Source: Brevundimonas sp. AAP58 (GTDB taxonomy: Bacteria; Pseudomonadota; Alphaproteobacteria; Caulobacterales; Caulobacteraceae). Taken from it: a stretch of 64,000 nt of DNA. Below, piece after piece: positions 11,227 to 17,434 of the stretch. Numbering within the stretch: position 1 is the stretch's first letter; every line of letters begins with the position of its first letter. The position numbers and the translations under genes are program-made. A model generated the notes under the pieces. It searched no databases, was not told the origin of the DNA, and worked only from the letters and a program-made list of their open reading frames with translations. Where the stretch lies: contig NZ_LJHU01000075.1 in the NCBI RefSeq assembly GCF_001295975.1, positions 1 through 64,000 of the forward strand. The letters run 5' to 3'.

Positions 11227-11782
11227 CGCGCTCGAGGTTCGTACTGGCCTGCCCGAGGCCCATCGCTGGCTGCTGGAGACCTATCCGCGCCTGCGCTGGC
11301 ACGACGCGGAACTGGGCGAGGTCGCGCGGTTCTGGCTGCAGATGCACGCGGGCTTTCGCCACAAGCAGGCGGAGATGGAGCGCCACGTCACGGTGTGGCG
11401 AACCGGGGGCGACCTGGTCGCCCTGCATCGTGGACTGATCCCGACGCTTCAGGCCTATCTTCAGCATCTGGACGGGCATCACCGGGTCGAGACCGGCCAC
11501 TATTTTCCGGTCATGCGCCGTGTGGAGCCCCGGATCACGACGGGGATTGACCTGCTGGACGCCGACCACGAGGCCATCCACGGCCATCTCGAGACGCTGT
11601 TCAAGGCGGGACTGGCGTTTCACCAGGCGCTGGCGGGCGGAGCCCTGGACGCCGCGGACCGGGCCGCGCGACTGGCCGAGGTGCTGGATCGCGTCACGCC
11701 CGCCGCCTGCCGCCACCTGGAGGACGAGGAGGACATCGTCATCCCCCTGATCCAGCGCCACGCGGACGCGTTCGCGCACTGA
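11219..11782 (+). CDS. Hemerythrin HHE domain protein
   Basis: About 187 residues if translation begins at TTG 11219, overlapping the mnmA stop; no ATG fits before the conserved domain. The protein is helical and rich in metal-ligand His/Glu: [32 protein letters not shown] and [18 protein letters not shown], matching the HHE cation-binding pattern used to bind a di-iron centre. Possible roles are oxygen, NO or redox handling. Its last ~54 bases were copied twice downstream (at 13714 and 15620), so this gene is the anchor from which the cassette array was duplicated. Confidence 0.8.
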
Positions 11783-12020
11783 GGCGGACATCGGCCGATC
11801 ACATCTGCGCGACCTGCTCGTGGACGCATTAACTCCAGATTGTCAGCCGACGGTCATTTCGCAGTACGGGACCAACCTGATCCGACAGCAAATTCTCATC
11901 TGCGATACCGTCCTGTCGCCGGTCGCGCAGGGTGAACGCCCGACGCACAGCTCCATTGACAGCCCCCCCCCCGTTTCGAGCGAGGGTTGCGTGCGGGCTT
12001 TTCCGCCAGGAGGATAGGAT
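11729..12020 (+). repeat. Cassette leader repeat R1 (first copy)
   Basis: A ~290-base block that recurs at 13714-14004 and 15620-15904. Here its first ~54 bases are the functional 3' end of the hemerythrin gene. The rest (11783-12020) is non-coding and ends at the ATG of the first Cys-rich peptide. Conserved landmarks are GATCACAT, TTAACTCCAGATTGTCAG, GGTCATTTCGCAGT, TTGACA (11956-11961), a run of ten C (11963-11972), CGAGCGAGGGTTG and a GGAGGAT ribosome-binding site. TTGACA is a plausible -35 box; no clear -10 is visible. Confidence 0.85.
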
Positions 12021-12227
12021 ATGCCGAAGACCAAGCTTATCGCCGCATCCGTCGCGTCCCTGACCATTTTCGCGCTTACCCCGCTTCAGGCGTTTGCGGG
12101 TTCGCCGACCTGTCGTGCGTGCTTCTTGGGATGCCTCGAGTCCTACAGTGGCGACGAGTATCTGCTGTCACAGTGCACGGCCAACTGCTTGGACTCTGAC
12201 GGTACTTTCTGCCAAGCCGATCTCTGA
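12021..12227 (+). CDS. Cassette 1 secreted six-cysteine peptide
   Basis: 68 residues: a signal peptide (MPKTKLIAAS... ending near QAFAG) and a ~42-residue mature part. The cysteines follow C-X2-C-X3-C-X13-C-X3-C-X7-C, the same spacing as in the cassette 3 peptide. The core C-X3-C-X13-C-X3-C resembles twin-CX3C helical hairpins such as small TIMs and plant alpha-hairpinins, so a disulfide-pinned two-helix hairpin is likely (inference). Shared residues outside the Cys include CLxxYxxDxYLxxQC and CxDxxGxxCQ. GGAGGAT precedes the ATG. I know no named family for it. Confidence 0.75.
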   Translation: MPKTKLIAASVASLTIFALTPLQAFAGSPTCRACFLGCLESYSGDEYLLSQCTANCLDSDGTFCQADL

Positions 12228-12338
12228 TCTGAATGAAAATAGGGTTTGGCGCAGCTGCAGATGCAGCCAAACACATCTTTTCGGGCACATCAACCCGCGC
12301 CGTCGTCCACACATGTATCGCAGTTGGGTTAGACAATA

Positions 12339-12944
12339 ATGCAGCTACGCCTAGATGCTCTTCTTGCAGTCTTTGGCCTGCTTTTGCCGATACAAGACAC
12401 AGTTGGTCGATTTACGGCTAGAGAGCTCGTCGAAATAGCAGACCGATATTGCATTTCGCCCGACGGCGACCATTCGTGGACTCTCGATTTAGCGATACAC
12501 AACGGATATCAGCCACTCACGCCAGACCTTTTCGAGAATTTGCGCCTGCCCGGCGCAAGGCAACTTCGAGGTGTCAGCAGAATCATTGACGGATCTGAGG
12601 TGCGCATTCTTACCGCCAAGAACCGCATTCGGTACGGCGGCGTCACAACATACTTCCATGTTTGCTGGGTCGCAGCCGATCCCGCATCCCGGCGCGACGT
12701 CGATAGTGAAGTCCGCCGCTTTCTGGACATCGAACGGTTCAGACAGGAAGGCGCGTTTGTCTATGCATGGCTACCCCAACCGGATGGCACAAGACGAACC
12801 GTACGTCGCAAGGCATTTGAGCTCCAGGGCTTCGCTTTGTCTCGTGACCAGGGCATGCGTCTGGTTTTAACCAATCAGTATCTCGACCAAGTGTCGATCA
12901 CCTATATGCGCCCGGTGGAGAGCTGCGAAGACTGGTGCTATTGA
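12339..12944 (+). CDS. Cassette 1 secreted protein, subfamily A
   Basis: 201 residues with a signal peptide (MQLRLDALLAVFGLLLPIQ). Shared family motifs are ADRYCISPDGDH, LRLPGARQLRG, VRILTAKNR, HVCWVAA, VYAWLPQPDG and SRDQGMRL. The C-terminus ESCEDWCY marks subfamily A, matched by EDCEGWCY in the cassette 3 gene at 16784. It has four cysteines: two family-wide (YC, CW) and two in the tail. The gene and its flanks are visibly richer in A and T than the surroundings. Its ribosome-binding site is weak. I do not recognise the family and assign no function. Confidence 0.75.
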   Translation: MQLRLDALLAVFGLLLPIQDTVGRFTARELVEIADRYCISPDGDHSWTLDLAIHNGYQPLTPDLFENLRLPGARQLRGVSRIIDGSEVRILTAKNRIRYGGVTTYFHVCWVAADPASRRDVDSEVRRFLDIERFRQEGAFVYAWLPQPDGTRRTVRRKAFELQGFALSRDQGMRLVLTNQYLDQVSITYMRPVESCEDWCY

Positions 12945-13059
12945 TCATCAGCATGTTCCGGATGGTCTATTTTTTGAAATGATAACTGGCGTCGAAACCT
13001 ACATTTGATCATATCGTTATCAGGGTAGATCAAGAGTTTTTCTTGGAATAGTTCTGATA

Positions 13060-13668
13060 TTGTCTACCTTGCTCGCCGGGTCTCAGGCCTCCTCTACCGC
13101 CGATGCAGAGGCGACAGAGCTGCTCGAACGATACTGCCTGGCGTGGGGCGGCGATCACCGGGTAACGTGGCAGCGACTCGAGGAAGATGGTTTCGAGCAG
13201 AGGGAGCGAGATCGACCCGAGGAGAGCCTCCTAGGCGTGGTGGACGCATCACTTCGTCTTTATGCCGGAGGTGACGACGGGCACGGTGCGAAGGTGATGA
13301 CTGGCGCGACTTGGATAACTGTACCGGATCAGGGTCGCACCCACTATCGCATGTGCTGGGTCTCTGCCCCGGGCGACCCAGAGGTCGCCGATCGGCGGCT
13401 CCGCGATACCTTGAGCATCGACAGTTTCCGTGTGGTTCGAGGCATCCGCCTCTTCGCATGGATACCCCGGCCGGGAGACGTCAATGAACCGGTGTCCCGA
13501 CGCGAATACTTCCGCTCCGGGCAGCGTCTCGCACGGGATCAGGGACTTCGCATGGTGACGATCCGGGACCATGAGGGCCAAGTGTTCCTTGGCTATGCCA
13601 GCCCACGGGACGAAGCCACCTATCTTGGCTTCGACTGGTCCGGGCCGGAGCCGGTGCCCCGCCCGTGA
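13060..13668 (+). CDS. Cassette 1 secreted protein, subfamily B, with damaged start
   Basis: Very similar to the intact 16155 gene over most of its length (ERYCLAW.GDHR.TWQRLEEDGFE, HYRMCWVSAPGD, RLFAWIPRPGDVNEPVSRRE, GFDWSGPEPVPRP). Where that gene has GGA-ATG-CTG, this copy has AGA-GTT-TTT, so the ATG is lost. The frame upstream still encodes a hydrophobic signal-like stretch (VFLGIVLILSTLLAGSQA) from 13036. The only later start is TTG 13060, which would leave a shortened signal peptide. It may be poorly translated, or on the way to a pseudogene. The preceding 115 bases are strongly AT-rich and hold no gene. Confidence 0.6.
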   Translation: MSTLLAGSQASSTADAEATELLERYCLAWGGDHRVTWQRLEEDGFEQRERDRPEESLLGVVDASLRLYAGGDDGHGAKVMTGATWITVPDQGRTHYRMCWVSAPGDPEVADRRLRDTLSIDSFRVVRGIRLFAWIPRPGDVNEPVSRREYFRSGQRLARDQGLRMVTIRDHEGQVFLGYASPRDEATYLGFDWSGPEPVPRP

Positions 13669-13713
13669 GGGAAACTGAAGTTGCGAACGGCTTTGCTTCA
13701 TCTCAAGGTGCGG

Positions 13714-14004
13714 GAGGACATCGTCATCCCCCTGATCCAGCGCCACGCCGATGCCTTCGCGTCCTGAGGCGGCACCCGGGCGATCACATATGCGCGACCA
13801 GCGCGTCGGAGCGTTAACTCCAGATTGTCAGCGGGCGGTCATTTCGCAGTACGGGACCGCCCTGATCTAAAAGCGAATTCCCGACCGTAATGCTGTCTTG
13901 TCACCTGTCCCGCAGGGTGAACGCCCGACACGCCGCTCTATTGACATGCCCCCCCCATTGCGAGCGAGGGTTGTGGGCGGGCTTTTCCGCGAGGAGGGTT
14001 GGAC
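13714..14004 (+). repeat. Cassette leader repeat R2 (second copy)
   Basis: Second ~290-base leader. It opens with a copy of the hemerythrin gene's 3' end (GAGGACATCGTCATCCCC through TTCGCG and a TGA), now detached from any hemerythrin frame. It keeps TTAACTCCAGATTGTCAG, GGTCATTTCGCAGTACGGGAC, TTGACA at 13941-13946, a run of eight C (13949-13956) and GAGGAGGG before the peptide ATG. The 336-base gene-free stretch 13669-14004 consists of this block plus 45 bases with no visible feature. Confidence 0.85.
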
Positions 14005-14217
14005 ATGAAATGGCTAAAGGTGACGGCTGCGGCGATGATGTCTCTGGGCCTCGTTTCGATGGCACCCCAGGCGTCCTGCGCAGCGAACGGTGCTTGCCAA
14101 GGCTGCTACAATTGATGTCTGCAGACTTACGGCGACGACCTGTATCTCTTTACGCAATGCTTGGACCATTGCGTGGATGAGAATGGTATTCCCTGCCAAA
14201 GCGATGCTGGGGGCTGA
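14005..14217 (+). pseudogene. Cassette 2 six-cysteine peptide, interrupted by in-frame TGA
   Basis: Begins at ATG 14005 with a signal sequence (MKWLKVTAAAMMSLGL...) almost base-identical to the cassette 3 peptide, two differences being visible in the first ~77 bases. Codon 37 is TGA (14113-14115) where cassette 3 has AGT (Ser). After it the frame stays open to TGA 14215-14217 and retains CLQTYGDDLYLFTQC, CVDENGIPC and the six-Cys spacing. Termination at codon 37 would leave only two of the six pattern cysteines. It looks like a recently inactivated copy. Selenocysteine is unlikely because the homologous residue is Ser or Gly. Confidence 0.75.
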
Positions 14218-14244
14218 TCGGGCTATTCGGACCGATATCACCAC

Positions 14245-14877
14245 ATGATCAGTGACTTACTCATCGCTACACTGCTGGGCACTGGCACGCTACAGCCAAG
14301 GGAATCTGAGCCTCCCTTGGCTGTCTTGGCCGACCGCTACTGCATCGGCCCTGACGGCGATCATCGCGCGACGTGGCAGTACGCCACCGAGGACGGATTT
14401 TCTCCCCTCAATCCTGACGAGTTCGTCGGCCTGCGCCTTCCCGGTTTCACCTCCCGATTGCGCGCTTTCAGGAAGCTTGAAGCGGACAGGGAGCTGAGAG
14501 TCCTGACTTCGGCCGGCTATATCGGCGGGGCCGGTCAAGGCAGAACATACTACCGGTACTGCTGGGTTTCTTCGACCCAGGAGGACGTTCAAAATGTCGA
14601 TCGTGACCTCGAAGCGTTGACTGGCACCGCGAGCTTCAGGGTCGAGGGTCGAACACGCCTCTTCGCGTGGATTCCCAGACCGGGAGGCGAAGTCGAGCGG
14701 GTGTCCAGACGCCTCTACATGCTGTCGGGATGGGTTCTCGCTCGGGAACAAGGACTGAGACAGGTCACGATCCGTCCCTACGACGCGGGTGTCTTTGTTG
14801 GGTATGCAAGTCCACGCACCGAGGAAACATATGAGGGCGCAGACTGGTCCGGGCCCGAGCCGGTGCCGCGACCGTGA
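14245..14877 (+). CDS. Cassette 2 secreted protein, subfamily B (first)
   Basis: 210 residues with a short hydrophobic leader (MISDLLIATLLGTG). Family motifs are ADRYCIGPDGDHRATWQY, LRLPGF, ELRVLTSAG, YRYCWVSS, RLFAWIPRPGG, LAREQGLRQVTI, VFVGYASPRTEETYE and the subfamily B ending DWSGPEPVPRP. It has two conserved cysteines (YC and CW). Its closest relative is the next gene, 14874. Its stop overlaps that gene's GTG by four bases (GTGA), so the two are translated together. The family is not recognised and the function is unknown. Confidence 0.8.
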   Translation: MISDLLIATLLGTGTLQPRESEPPLAVLADRYCIGPDGDHRATWQYATEDGFSPLNPDEFVGLRLPGFTSRLRAFRKLEADRELRVLTSAGYIGGAGQGRTYYRYCWVSSTQEDVQNVDRDLEALTGTASFRVEGRTRLFAWIPRPGGEVERVSRRLYMLSGWVLAREQGLRQVTIRPYDAGVFVGYASPRTEETYEGADWSGPEPVPRP

Positions 14878-15551
14878 ACCTCGGCGCACAGGGCTTTGTC
14901 GTCGCATTGTTATGCTGCCTCTGTCTGTTGGCGACGACCCCAACACCGGCGCTCCCGCAGACTTCTGGCTCTTTCAACGGCAGCGATCTGGTCGGACTGG
15001 CCGACCGTTACTGCATCGGCCCCGACGGCGACCATCGCGCGACGTGGCAGTACATCGCCGAGGACGGCTTCACTCCGCTGACGGCCGAGGACTTTCCGAA
15101 CCTGCATCTGCCCGGGTCGTTCGAGCGACACATCCGGGCCTTTCGCAAGTTCGAAGGCTCACGCGAGTTGCGCGTGATCACGGCGGCCAACCGGATGCGC
15201 GCGCCCGGTCAGGGGATTACCTATTTGCGATGGTGCTGGGTCTCGTCATCGGTCGACGACGTTCGTCGGGTCGACGGCGACATGCGGGAGCTGGTGGGCG
15301 TCAGAAGTTTCCGGGTGGAGGGTCCCACGCGCCTGTTCGCGTGGATTCCGCGTCCGGACGGATCGAACGAAGCCATCTCGCGGCGCGTCTTCATGAGAGA
15401 GGGCTGGACCCTCGCGCGTGAACAAGGCTTGCGCCAGCTGACGCTGACATCTCATGAGGGCGGCGTCTTTGTCGGCTACGCCAGCCCGCGCACCGAGGAG
15501 ACCTGGGAGGGCTTCGACTGGTCCGGCCCCGAGCCCGTGCCGAGGCCGTGA
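14874..15551 (+). CDS. Cassette 2 secreted protein, subfamily B (second)
   Basis: 225 residues starting at GTG 14874 within the previous stop. The signal peptide is strong (VVALLCCLCLLATT... to about residue 29). Motifs are LADRYCIGPDGDHRATWQY, LHLPGSFERHIRAFRKFEG, ELRVITAANRM, LRWCWVSSS, RLFAWIPRPDGSNE, LAREQGLRQLTL, VFVGYASPRTEETWEGF and DWSGPEPVPRP. The stretch AANRM at the central site is closer to subfamily A (LTAKNR, LTANNR), so it may be near the ancestral form. Inferred to be exported across the inner membrane and disulfide-bonded. Function unknown. Confidence 0.8.
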   Translation: MNLGAQGFVVALLCCLCLLATTPTPALPQTSGSFNGSDLVGLADRYCIGPDGDHRATWQYIAEDGFTPLTAEDFPNLHLPGSFERHIRAFRKFEGSRELRVITAANRMRAPGQGITYLRWCWVSSSVDDVRRVDGDMRELVGVRSFRVEGPTRLFAWIPRPDGSNEAISRRVFMREGWTLAREQGLRQLTLTSHEGGVFVGYASPRTEETWEGFDWSGPEPVPRP

Positions 15552-15619
15552 CCGGGGGGAGAACCGGCAGCGCAGACGAGCGCGGCGATTCATCGCCACA
15601 GCGATGGGCTCGCCCCCGG

Positions 15620-15904
15620 TCGTCATCCCCCTGATCCAGCGCCATGCCGACGCTTTCGCGCGCTGAGGCGGACATCGGGCGATCACATCTGCGCGACCTG
15701 CTCGTGGACGCATTAACTCCAGATTGTCAGCCGGCGGTCATTTCGCAGTGCGGGACCGATCTGATCCGACAGCGATTTCCCGACCACAATGCCGGTCTGT
15801 CCCTGGTCTCGCCGGGTGAATGCCCGTCGCGCCGCTCCATTGACAAGCCCCCCCCCCTTTCGAGCGAGGGTTGCGCGCGGGCTTTTCCGCAAGGAGGATT
15901 GGAC
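15620..15904 (+). repeat. Cassette leader repeat R3 (third copy)
   Basis: Third leader, starting within the copied hemerythrin 3' end at TCGTCATCCCCCTGATCCAG and ending at the peptide ATG 15905. Most positions match R1 by eye, including GCGCGACCTGCTCGTGGACG and TTAACTCCAGATTGTCAG. TTGACA is at 15840-15845, a run of nine C at 15848-15856, and AAGGAGGATT is the ribosome-binding site. The 353-base gap 15552-15904 is this block preceded by 68 bases with no gene or clear site. Confidence 0.85.
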
Positions 15905-16114
15905 ATGAAATGGCTGAAGGTGACGGCTGCGGCGATGATGTCTCTGGGCCTCGTTTCGATGGCACCCCAAGCGTCCTGCGCTTCGAGTGGCGCTTGTCAA
16001 GTATGTTACAACAGTTGTCTGCAAAACTACGGTGACGACTTGTATCTCTTTACACAATGCTACAGCCATTGCGTCGATGAATACGGAACTCCCTGTCAGG
16101 ATGATACGCCTTAA
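15905..16114 (+). CDS. Cassette 3 secreted six-cysteine peptide
   Basis: 69 residues, the intact reference copy. The signal peptide ends around residue 24-26 (APQASCAS). The mature part carries CQVCYNSC, LQNYGDDLYLFTQ, CYSHC and VDEYGTPCQ, giving C-X2-C-X3-C-X13-C-X3-C-X7-C. It is acidic overall, unlike most membrane-lytic antimicrobial peptides. AAGGAGGATT precedes ATG 15905. A longer frame upstream to 15644 runs through the leader repeat and is not used. A helical hairpin held by CX3C pairs is inferred. No processing or export gene is adjacent, so Sec export is assumed from the signal peptide. Confidence 0.78.
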   Translation: MKWLKVTAAAMMSLGLVSMAPQASCASSGACQVCYNSCLQNYGDDLYLFTQCYSHCVDEYGTPCQDDTP

Positions 16115-16154: not shown

Positions 16155-16787
16155 ATGCTGCTTCGAATCGCTTTAGTCTGGTCCGCCTTGTTCGTTGGGG
16201 TTCAGGAGGCTCCAACCGCCGGTGATGAAGCAACCGAGCTTCTCGAACGATACTGCCTCGCGTGGGATGGTGATCACCGGGCGACGTGGCAGCGCCTTGA
16301 GGAAGACGGCTTCGAGCGGATTGAGCGGGATCGACCCGGCGAGTCGCTGTTCGGCGTGCTGGACGCGACACTTCGCATCTATGCCCCCAATGGCGCGGAC
16401 CACGACACCAGGGTGATGACGGGCGCGACCTGGATCACCTCACCGGATCAGGGACGGGCTCACTATCGCATGTGCTGGGTCTCCGCCCCCGGCGACGCTG
16501 AGGCTGCGGATCGGCGACTCCGCAATACCTTGAACATCGCCAGTTTCCGTGTGGTCCGAGGCACCCGCCTCTTCGCATGGATACCCCGGCCCGGAGACGT
16601 CAATGAACCGGTGTCCCGACGCGAATACTTCCGCTCCGGGCAGCGTCTCGCACGGGAACAGGGACTTCGCATGGTGACGATCCGGGACCACGAGGGCCAG
16701 GTGTTCCTCGGCTATGCCAGCCCACGGGACGAAGCGACCTATCTCGGCTTCGACTGGTCCGGGCCGGAGCCGATGCCGAGACCATGA
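16155..16787 (+). CDS. Cassette 3 secreted protein, subfamily B
   Basis: 210 residues with an intact ATG and signal peptide (MLLRIALVWSALFVGVQ). It is the near twin of the cassette 1 gene at 13060, from LLERYCLAW.GDHR through SFRVVRG.RLFAWIPRPGDV to the ending GFDWSGPEP.PRP. This B1/B4 branch lacks the PDGDH form (AWDGDH instead) and has TGATWIT in place of TAKNR. It has two conserved cysteines in the mature part. Its stop overlaps the ATG of the next gene by four bases. Function unknown. Confidence 0.8.
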   Translation: MLLRIALVWSALFVGVQEAPTAGDEATELLERYCLAWDGDHRATWQRLEEDGFERIERDRPGESLFGVLDATLRIYAPNGADHDTRVMTGATWITSPDQGRAHYRMCWVSAPGDAEAADRRLRNTLNIASFRVVRGTRLFAWIPRPGDVNEPVSRREYFRSGQRLAREQGLRMVTIRDHEGQVFLGYASPRDEATYLGFDWSGPEPMPRP

Positions 16788-17434
16788 CCAACGAAGCCGG
16801 TCAGAAGCAAACAAGACGGCGGCCCGTCACGGCAGCAGCTATCGGTTCGACACTCATCGCCTTGTCTGCCGTTTCAGCTGCAGCCGCGCGCTCGGAAATA
16901 GGCGCGGGCGACTTCTACGCCATGGCCGACCGCTACTGCATCCGACCCGATGGCGATCATCCGCTGACCTGGGCATTGGCCGAAAGCGATGGCTGGGTCG
17001 TGCTTGATCCATCGCAGTTCGAGGGATTAAGCCTGCCCGGCGCGCGCCAGCTCCGAGGTTATGAGACGGTGCGAGATGGGGTTCGGCTTCGCATCTTGAC
17101 CGCAAACAACCGTTTCCGCGGTTGGAACGCTGGGATCACCTATTTCAATCTGTGCTGGGTGAGCGCGGAGCCCTTCGACCGGCAGGAACTGGACGAGGAG
17201 ATACGATCCCAACTCGCCATCCCGGGATTCCGACAGGAAGGCGCGCGGGTCTACGCTTGGGTGCCTCTGCCAAACGGCGGTCGCCGTATTGTTGGGTCGA
17301 GAGAGTTTCAACGTCGCTTCCATGCAATCGCAAGGGAAGACGGCATGCGAATGCTCCTGTCCAATGATCGCCAGGGCATGGTCGCCGCAACCTACATGAA
17401 GGCCACGGAGGACTGTGAAGGGTGGTGCTACTGA
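16784..17434 (+). CDS. Cassette 3 secreted protein, subfamily A
   Basis: 216 residues with an Arg-rich n-region (QTRRRP) and signal peptide to about ALSAVSAAAARS. Shared motifs are ADRYCIRPDGDH, LSLPGARQLRG, LRILTANNRFR, NLCWVSA, GFRQEGARVYAWVPLPNG and REDGMRMLL, with the subfamily A ending EDCEGWCY. Its partner in cassette 1 is the 12339 gene. In cassette 1 the order is A then B; here it is B then A. The stop lies 3 bases from the convergent HxlR-type regulator, so there is no room for a separate terminator. Confidence 0.8.
   Translation: MTNEAGQKQTRRRPVTAAAIGSTLIALSAVSAAAARSEIGAGDFYAMADRYCIRPDGDHPLTWALAESDGWVVLDPSQFEGLSLPGARQLRGYETVRDGVRLRILTANNRFRGWNAGITYFNLCWVSAEPFDRQELDEEIRSQLAIPGFRQEGARVYAWVPLPNGGRRIVGSREFQRRFHAIAREDGMRMLLSNDRQGMVAATYMKATEDCEGWCY

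What the first reader, a model, noticed from the sequence alone, without database searches (positions are those of the whole stretch)
12021..16114. New-looking peptide family with C-X2-C-X3-C-X13-C-X3-C-X7-C
The peptides at 12021 and 15905 keep exactly the same six-Cys spacing although the other residues differ strongly; the broken copy at 14005 keeps it too. The core CX3C-X13-CX3C resembles the twin-CX3C helical hairpins of small TIM proteins and plant alpha-hairpinins, which is unusual in bacteria. The mature parts are acidic.
Basis: partly seen in the sequence, partly recalled or inferred. Interest (0 to 1): 0.75.

Follow-up and report, generated by a model that had tools for sequence, protein, structure and literature searches.

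The report
Orphan six-cysteine secreted peptides in Brevundimonas
A few Brevundimonas bacteria carry a previously undescribed family of tiny, probably exported, disulfide-rich peptides, always encoded next to a second, larger secreted protein, so the two probably work as a pair; what the pair does is not known.

Summary
Peptides at 12021-12227 and 15905-16114, and a copy at 14005-14217 with an in-frame TGA, share C-X2-C-X3-C-X13-C-X3-C-X7-C; shuffles expect none. They are real genes: each has a signal sequence and a ribosome site, and silent changes in the mature part are saturated while the protein is kept (dN/dS about 0.1 for the closest pair). Each peptide heads a unit with two copies of a ~210-residue exported protein, and the units are tandem duplications in a low-GC island between a hemerythrin gene and an HxlR-type regulator. 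Three of 131 Brevundimonas genomes have the peptide, always beside a partner gene, at two chromosomal sites. An exact-pattern scan of 84,980 species found no other credible case. One relative has X18 instead of X13 and one copy has lost a cysteine. AlphaFold predicts two helices (pLDDT about 85) consistent with a disulfide-stapled hairpin, but no link to small TIMs, alpha-hairpinins or bufferins was found. Best reading: an orphan two-gene secreted peptide/partner system, the peptide binding its partner in the periplasm; a peptide-toxin/immunity pair is the main rival. Binding and function are inferred.

The parts
12021..12227 (+). peptide 1: 68-aa precursor, predicted Sec signal (LQAFA^GSP), six Cys, mature net charge -5
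   Evidence: AGGAGG just upstream of ATG
14005..14217 (+). peptide 2: same reading frame with in-frame TGA at 14113-14115, spacing otherwise intact; probably a recently broken copy
15905..16114 (+). peptide 3: 69-aa precursor, six Cys in the motif plus one near the signal cleavage site, mature net charge -6
12339..12944 (+). partner A1 (201 aa, exported-type N-terminus, ends CEDWCY)
13060..13668 (+). partner B1 (frame open but the ATG of its paralogue is replaced; probably a decaying copy)
14245..14877 (+). partner A2 (210 aa, ends WSGPEPVPRP), overlaps B2 by 4 bases
14874..15551 (+). partner B2 (225 aa, signal sequence); modelled
16155..16787 (+). partner A3 (210 aa), overlaps B3 by 4 bases
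16784..17434 (+). partner B3 (216 aa, ends CEGWCY)
11736..12023 (+). first copy of the repeated leader: tail of the hemerythrin gene, TTGACA, run of 10 C, GCGGGCTTTTCCGC, ribosome site
13721..14008 (+). second copy of the leader (run of 8 C), carries a duplicated hemerythrin-gene tail
15620..15907 (+). third copy of the leader (run of 10 C), carries a duplicated hemerythrin-gene tail

Best explanation
This is an accessory two-gene secreted system of a few Brevundimonas species. The peptide is exported by Sec, loses its signal sequence and folds in the oxidising periplasm into a short helical hairpin held by nested disulfides (probably C3-C4, C2-C5, C1-C6). It acts as a small binding subunit of the co-encoded ~200-residue alpha/beta partner, itself exported and with two invariant cysteines. 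The unit has been multiplied by tandem duplication, with paralogous peptide/partner genes behind a nearly constant leader. Shown: the genes, their constraint, the pairing of the genes and the duplications. Inferred: export, disulfide pairing, physical binding, location. The biological task of the pair is not established.
For: All 6 peptide copies in 3 of 3 peptide-bearing genomes lie next to a partner gene: 27-111 bases upstream of it on the same strand in the window and in G166, divergent about 110 bases away in G123. G123 has the pair at a different chromosomal site from the other two. Partner genes in units 2 and 3 overlap by 4 bases, as in operons. Peptide and partner are both under purifying selection: peptide 3 vs 2 dN 0.09, dS 0.87; partner pairs dN/dS 0.11-0.36 where dS could be computed. 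Signal-like N-termini and conserved ribosome sites. Peptide model has helices 29-41 and 46-54 at pLDDT about 85; partner model pLDDT 79.5, pTM 0.74. Island GC 0.606 against 0.678 for the rest of the window; the same mnmA-hemerythrin-HxlR neighbourhood lacks the cassettes in other species.
Against: Only three genomes carry the peptide, so the pairing rests on few independent events. Distant partner relatives occur in other Brevundimonas without any detectable peptide, so the partner can act alone. No interaction was modelled. Signal peptides were judged by eye. Unit 2 keeps two open partner frames although its peptide is broken.
Confidence: 0.42

Rival explanations
1. Antagonism: the peptide is a secreted or surface-held toxin against close relatives and the partner is its periplasmic immunity protein.
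For: Patchy, low-GC, tandemly amplified cassettes with diverged members behind a constant leader. The pattern of decay fits: the peptide is broken in unit 2 while both partner frames stay open, every intact peptide keeps at least one intact partner, and partner-only genomes exist. The weak top Foldseek match of the partner is the immunity protein Tsi3 (E 0.039).
Against: No exporter or lysis gene beside it, no PADLOC or PHROG match; acidic peptide; no sign of positive selection; the Tsi3 match is not significant and many unrelated folds score alike.
Confidence: 0.25
2. Dedicated folding or stability factor: the hairpin peptide is a chaperone of the partner, working like the twin-Cys hairpin proteins Mdm35/TRIAP1 do for the START-like Ups1/PRELID1.
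For: Hairpin-like peptide model beside an alpha/beta partner; weak START-like neighbours (best Z 5.6, rmsd 4.0, 100 aligned) and Ups1/Mdm35 second in Foldseek (E 0.044).
Against: Z 5.6 is below the 7-8 typical of unmatched models; TM-scores under 0.3 for the Ups1 rows; PRELID1-TRIAP1 only Z 3.6. Partner relatives exist without a peptide.
Confidence: 0.08
3. Metal or redox buffer: the Cys-rich peptide binds a metal in the periplasm, as bufferins do.
For: Six Cys, Sec signal and small size resemble Buf2 bufferins as described in PMC12452194.
Against: The genome has no MNIO modifying enzyme (PF05114: none, with positive controls); no NCBIfam or Pfam match.
Confidence: 0.08

Closest known systems
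Small TIM proteins (Tim9/Tim10, zf-Tim10_DDP)
   Same: twin CX3C with X13 between, predicted two helices
   Different: no profile match, extra first and last Cys, much shorter, Sec signal, bacterial, no tentacle helices
Plant alpha-hairpinins (4C/6C motif, PMC11591084)
   Same: C-X3-C-X4-20-C-X3-C core, small exported precursor, possible helix-loop-helix
   Different: acidic rather than positively charged, outer Cys at X2 and X7 instead of the plant 6C X3/X3, bacterial, paired with another gene
Buf2 bufferins (PMC12452194)
   Same: Sec signal, six Cys; Caulobacter vibrioides has a bufferin
   Different: no MNIO enzyme in this genome and no family match
Scorpion kappa-KTx toxins
   Same: weak profile match to the CX3C hairpin (E 0.75)
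   Different: not significant; animal, shorter; pattern convergence only

Membership tests
Small TIM | twin CX3C with 11-16 residues between (range from general knowledge) | tested here: met
   X13 between the CX3C pairs in the window copies and G166a; X18 in G123 lies outside that range, and G166b has lost one Cys of the second pair
Small TIM | match to the Pfam profile | tested here: not met
   no Pfam family at E<=1
Small TIM | hexameric chaperone of the mitochondrial intermembrane space | not testable with these tools
   bacterial gene; no assembly data
Alpha-hairpinin | 4C motif C-X3-C-X4-20-C-X3-C | tested here: met
Alpha-hairpinin | positive surface charge typical of antimicrobial peptides | tested here: not met
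   net charge -1 to -6
Alpha-hairpinin | helix-loop-helix with two nested disulfides | tested here: inconclusive
   two helices predicted, pTM 0.49; disulfides not measured
Bufferin (Buf1/Buf2) | MNIO modifying enzyme in the genome | tested here: not met
   PF05114 absent, controls positive
Bufferin (Buf1/Buf2) | family profile match | tested here: not met
   no Pfam or NCBIfam match
START / PRELI-like (partner) | START-like fold | tested here: inconclusive
   best Z 5.6, rmsd 4.0 over 100 residues, within background
Tsi3-type immunity protein (partner) | shared fold | tested here: inconclusive
   Foldseek E 0.039 and Z 4.1-4.5

The most novel reading that the evidence does not exclude
A bacterial periplasmic pair in which a twin-CX3C disulfide hairpin peptide escorts or regulates a START-like ligand- or lipid-carrying partner, an independently evolved analogue of the mitochondrial Mdm35-Ups1 and TRIAP1-PRELID1 pairs.
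Probability: 0.05. Interest if true: 0.85.

Novelty: new variant of a known kind. Interest (0 to 1): 0.45.

Why it matters
Twin-CX3C hairpins are mostly known from mitochondria, plants and venoms. A Sec-exported bacterial family with that layout, tied to an undescribed partner family, would be a small and testable peptide/protein pair in an easily grown genus, and its tandem cassettes behind a constant leader show how such a pair can spread and diversify.

Tried and rejected
Pfam, NCBIfam, PHROGs and PADLOC on peptides and partners gave no credible family; weak chance hits were Kringle, DUF6223, phrog_22098 and an oMTase model. PDB sequence profile searches gave nothing significant. Plasmid and phage tblastn found nothing. 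The exact pattern in 84,980 species gave 42 hits, of which only the B. subvibrioides MAG is real; the rest have stops, low complexity or no signal. The viral scan gave 55 hits, none credible. Weak profile hits elsewhere that were translated and read (G041, G122, G170, G113, G070) lack the full pattern or a signal. The leader has no RNA fold stronger than shuffles, no sigma-70-like site and no Rfam family. Foldseek and VIA-align gave no significant neighbour for either model; no claim about a new or known fold is made from this.

Full report
Observation. The peptide genes at 12021-12227 and 15905-16114 encode 68- and 69-residue precursors with identical C-X2-C-X3-C-X13-C-X3-C-X7-C spacing. The copy at 14005-14217 keeps the spacing but has TGA at 14113-14115. 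The pattern, with Asp/Asn two residues and Gly five residues after the fifth Cys, is found three times in the window and never in 100 shuffles.

These are genes. Each has a ribosome site a few bases before ATG and a hydrophobic N-terminus ending in an Ala-X-Ala-like site (judged by eye). Between peptide 3 and the broken copy the mature parts differ at 19 of about 23 silent sites but only 12 of about 97 replacement sites; dN/dS over the whole gene is 0.10. So the broken copy was under constraint until recently. The mature parts are acidic.

Relatives. Among 131 genomes of the genus only G000, G166 and G123 have convincing matches, and a profile search of 390 genomes of the family added none that I find credible. 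G166 has two copies, one with Arg in place of the fifth Cys; G123 has one copy with X18 in place of X13. The exact pattern in 84,980 species gave only the G166 contig as a credible hit; records of the window's own genome may be left out of that scan, and it cannot see other spacings. Viral contigs, phages and plasmids gave none.

Context. Each window peptide is followed by two genes of one ~210-residue exported family. The three units follow repeats of 288 bases that begin with the tail of the upstream hemerythrin gene. In G166 there are two peptide-partner units between mnmA and the hemerythrin gene, and the second is preceded by a duplicated mnmA tail, so the duplications happened separately. 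In other species mnmA and the hemerythrin gene are adjacent, and in G123 HxlR follows hemerythrin by 29 bases, without cassettes. G123 carries its peptide elsewhere, beside a divergent partner. Unit 1 and unit 3 are mostly 88-93% identical upstream, with one 73% stretch, but about 57-62% from the peptide start onward; since the upstream copies are young, the coding parts were probably exchanged or brought in by recombination (inference). The island has GC 0.606 against 0.678 around it, lowest at unit 1.

The partner. Members share two invariant Cys and several fixed residues. More distant relatives exist in other Brevundimonas and a few other Caulobacterales, without a peptide of this kind nearby; none was found outside the genus in an even sample of 385 genomes of the class. 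No known family matched. One partner copy, at 13060, has lost the ATG used by its paralogue at 16155.

Structure. With four sequences AlphaFold gives the peptide mean pLDDT 69 and pTM 0.49, with helices 29-41 (holding the first three Cys) and 46-54 (holding the fourth) at about 85; the fifth Cys lies just past helix 2. The partner model is better (79.5, pTM 0.74), an alpha/beta fold whose neighbours (START-like, Tsi3, DcrB, PsbP) all score within background.

Interpretation. Linkage, order and shared amplification make a peptide-partner pair the simplest reading. Toxin/immunity fits the patchy distribution and the pattern of gene decay, but nothing shows toxicity. Bufferin-like metal binding is unlikely because the genome lacks the modifying enzyme. 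Resemblance to small TIMs and alpha-hairpinins is a shared short Cys pattern, best taken as convergence.

Noticed in passing
window 11963-11972, 13949-13956, 15848-15857: Runs of 10, 8 and 10 C shortly after TTGACA upstream of each peptide; a length-variable tract in a possible promoter spacer could vary expression. No sigma-70-like site was scored.
   Followed up: partly
window 11993-12006 and repeats; L097 upstream of both peptides: Leader GCGGGCTTTTCCGC plus ribosome site, present upstream of all three window copies and the first G166 copy (the second G166 copy differs by one base).
   Followed up: partly
window 13036-13060: Start codon of the partner at 13060 replaced relative to its paralogue at 16155; probably a decaying copy.
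   Followed up: yes
G041:C1:1498967-1499134 (L138): Weak profile hit (E 2.2e-5) in another genus with only part of the Cys pattern and no signal sequence; probably chance.
   Followed up: partly
L045:9381-10121: A 246-residue lipoprotein-like gene directly follows the G123 peptide; no counterpart was seen in the window.
   Followed up: no
L032-L041: Distant partner relatives found once each in several Brevundimonas genomes, of unknown function, apparently without the peptide.
   Followed up: partly
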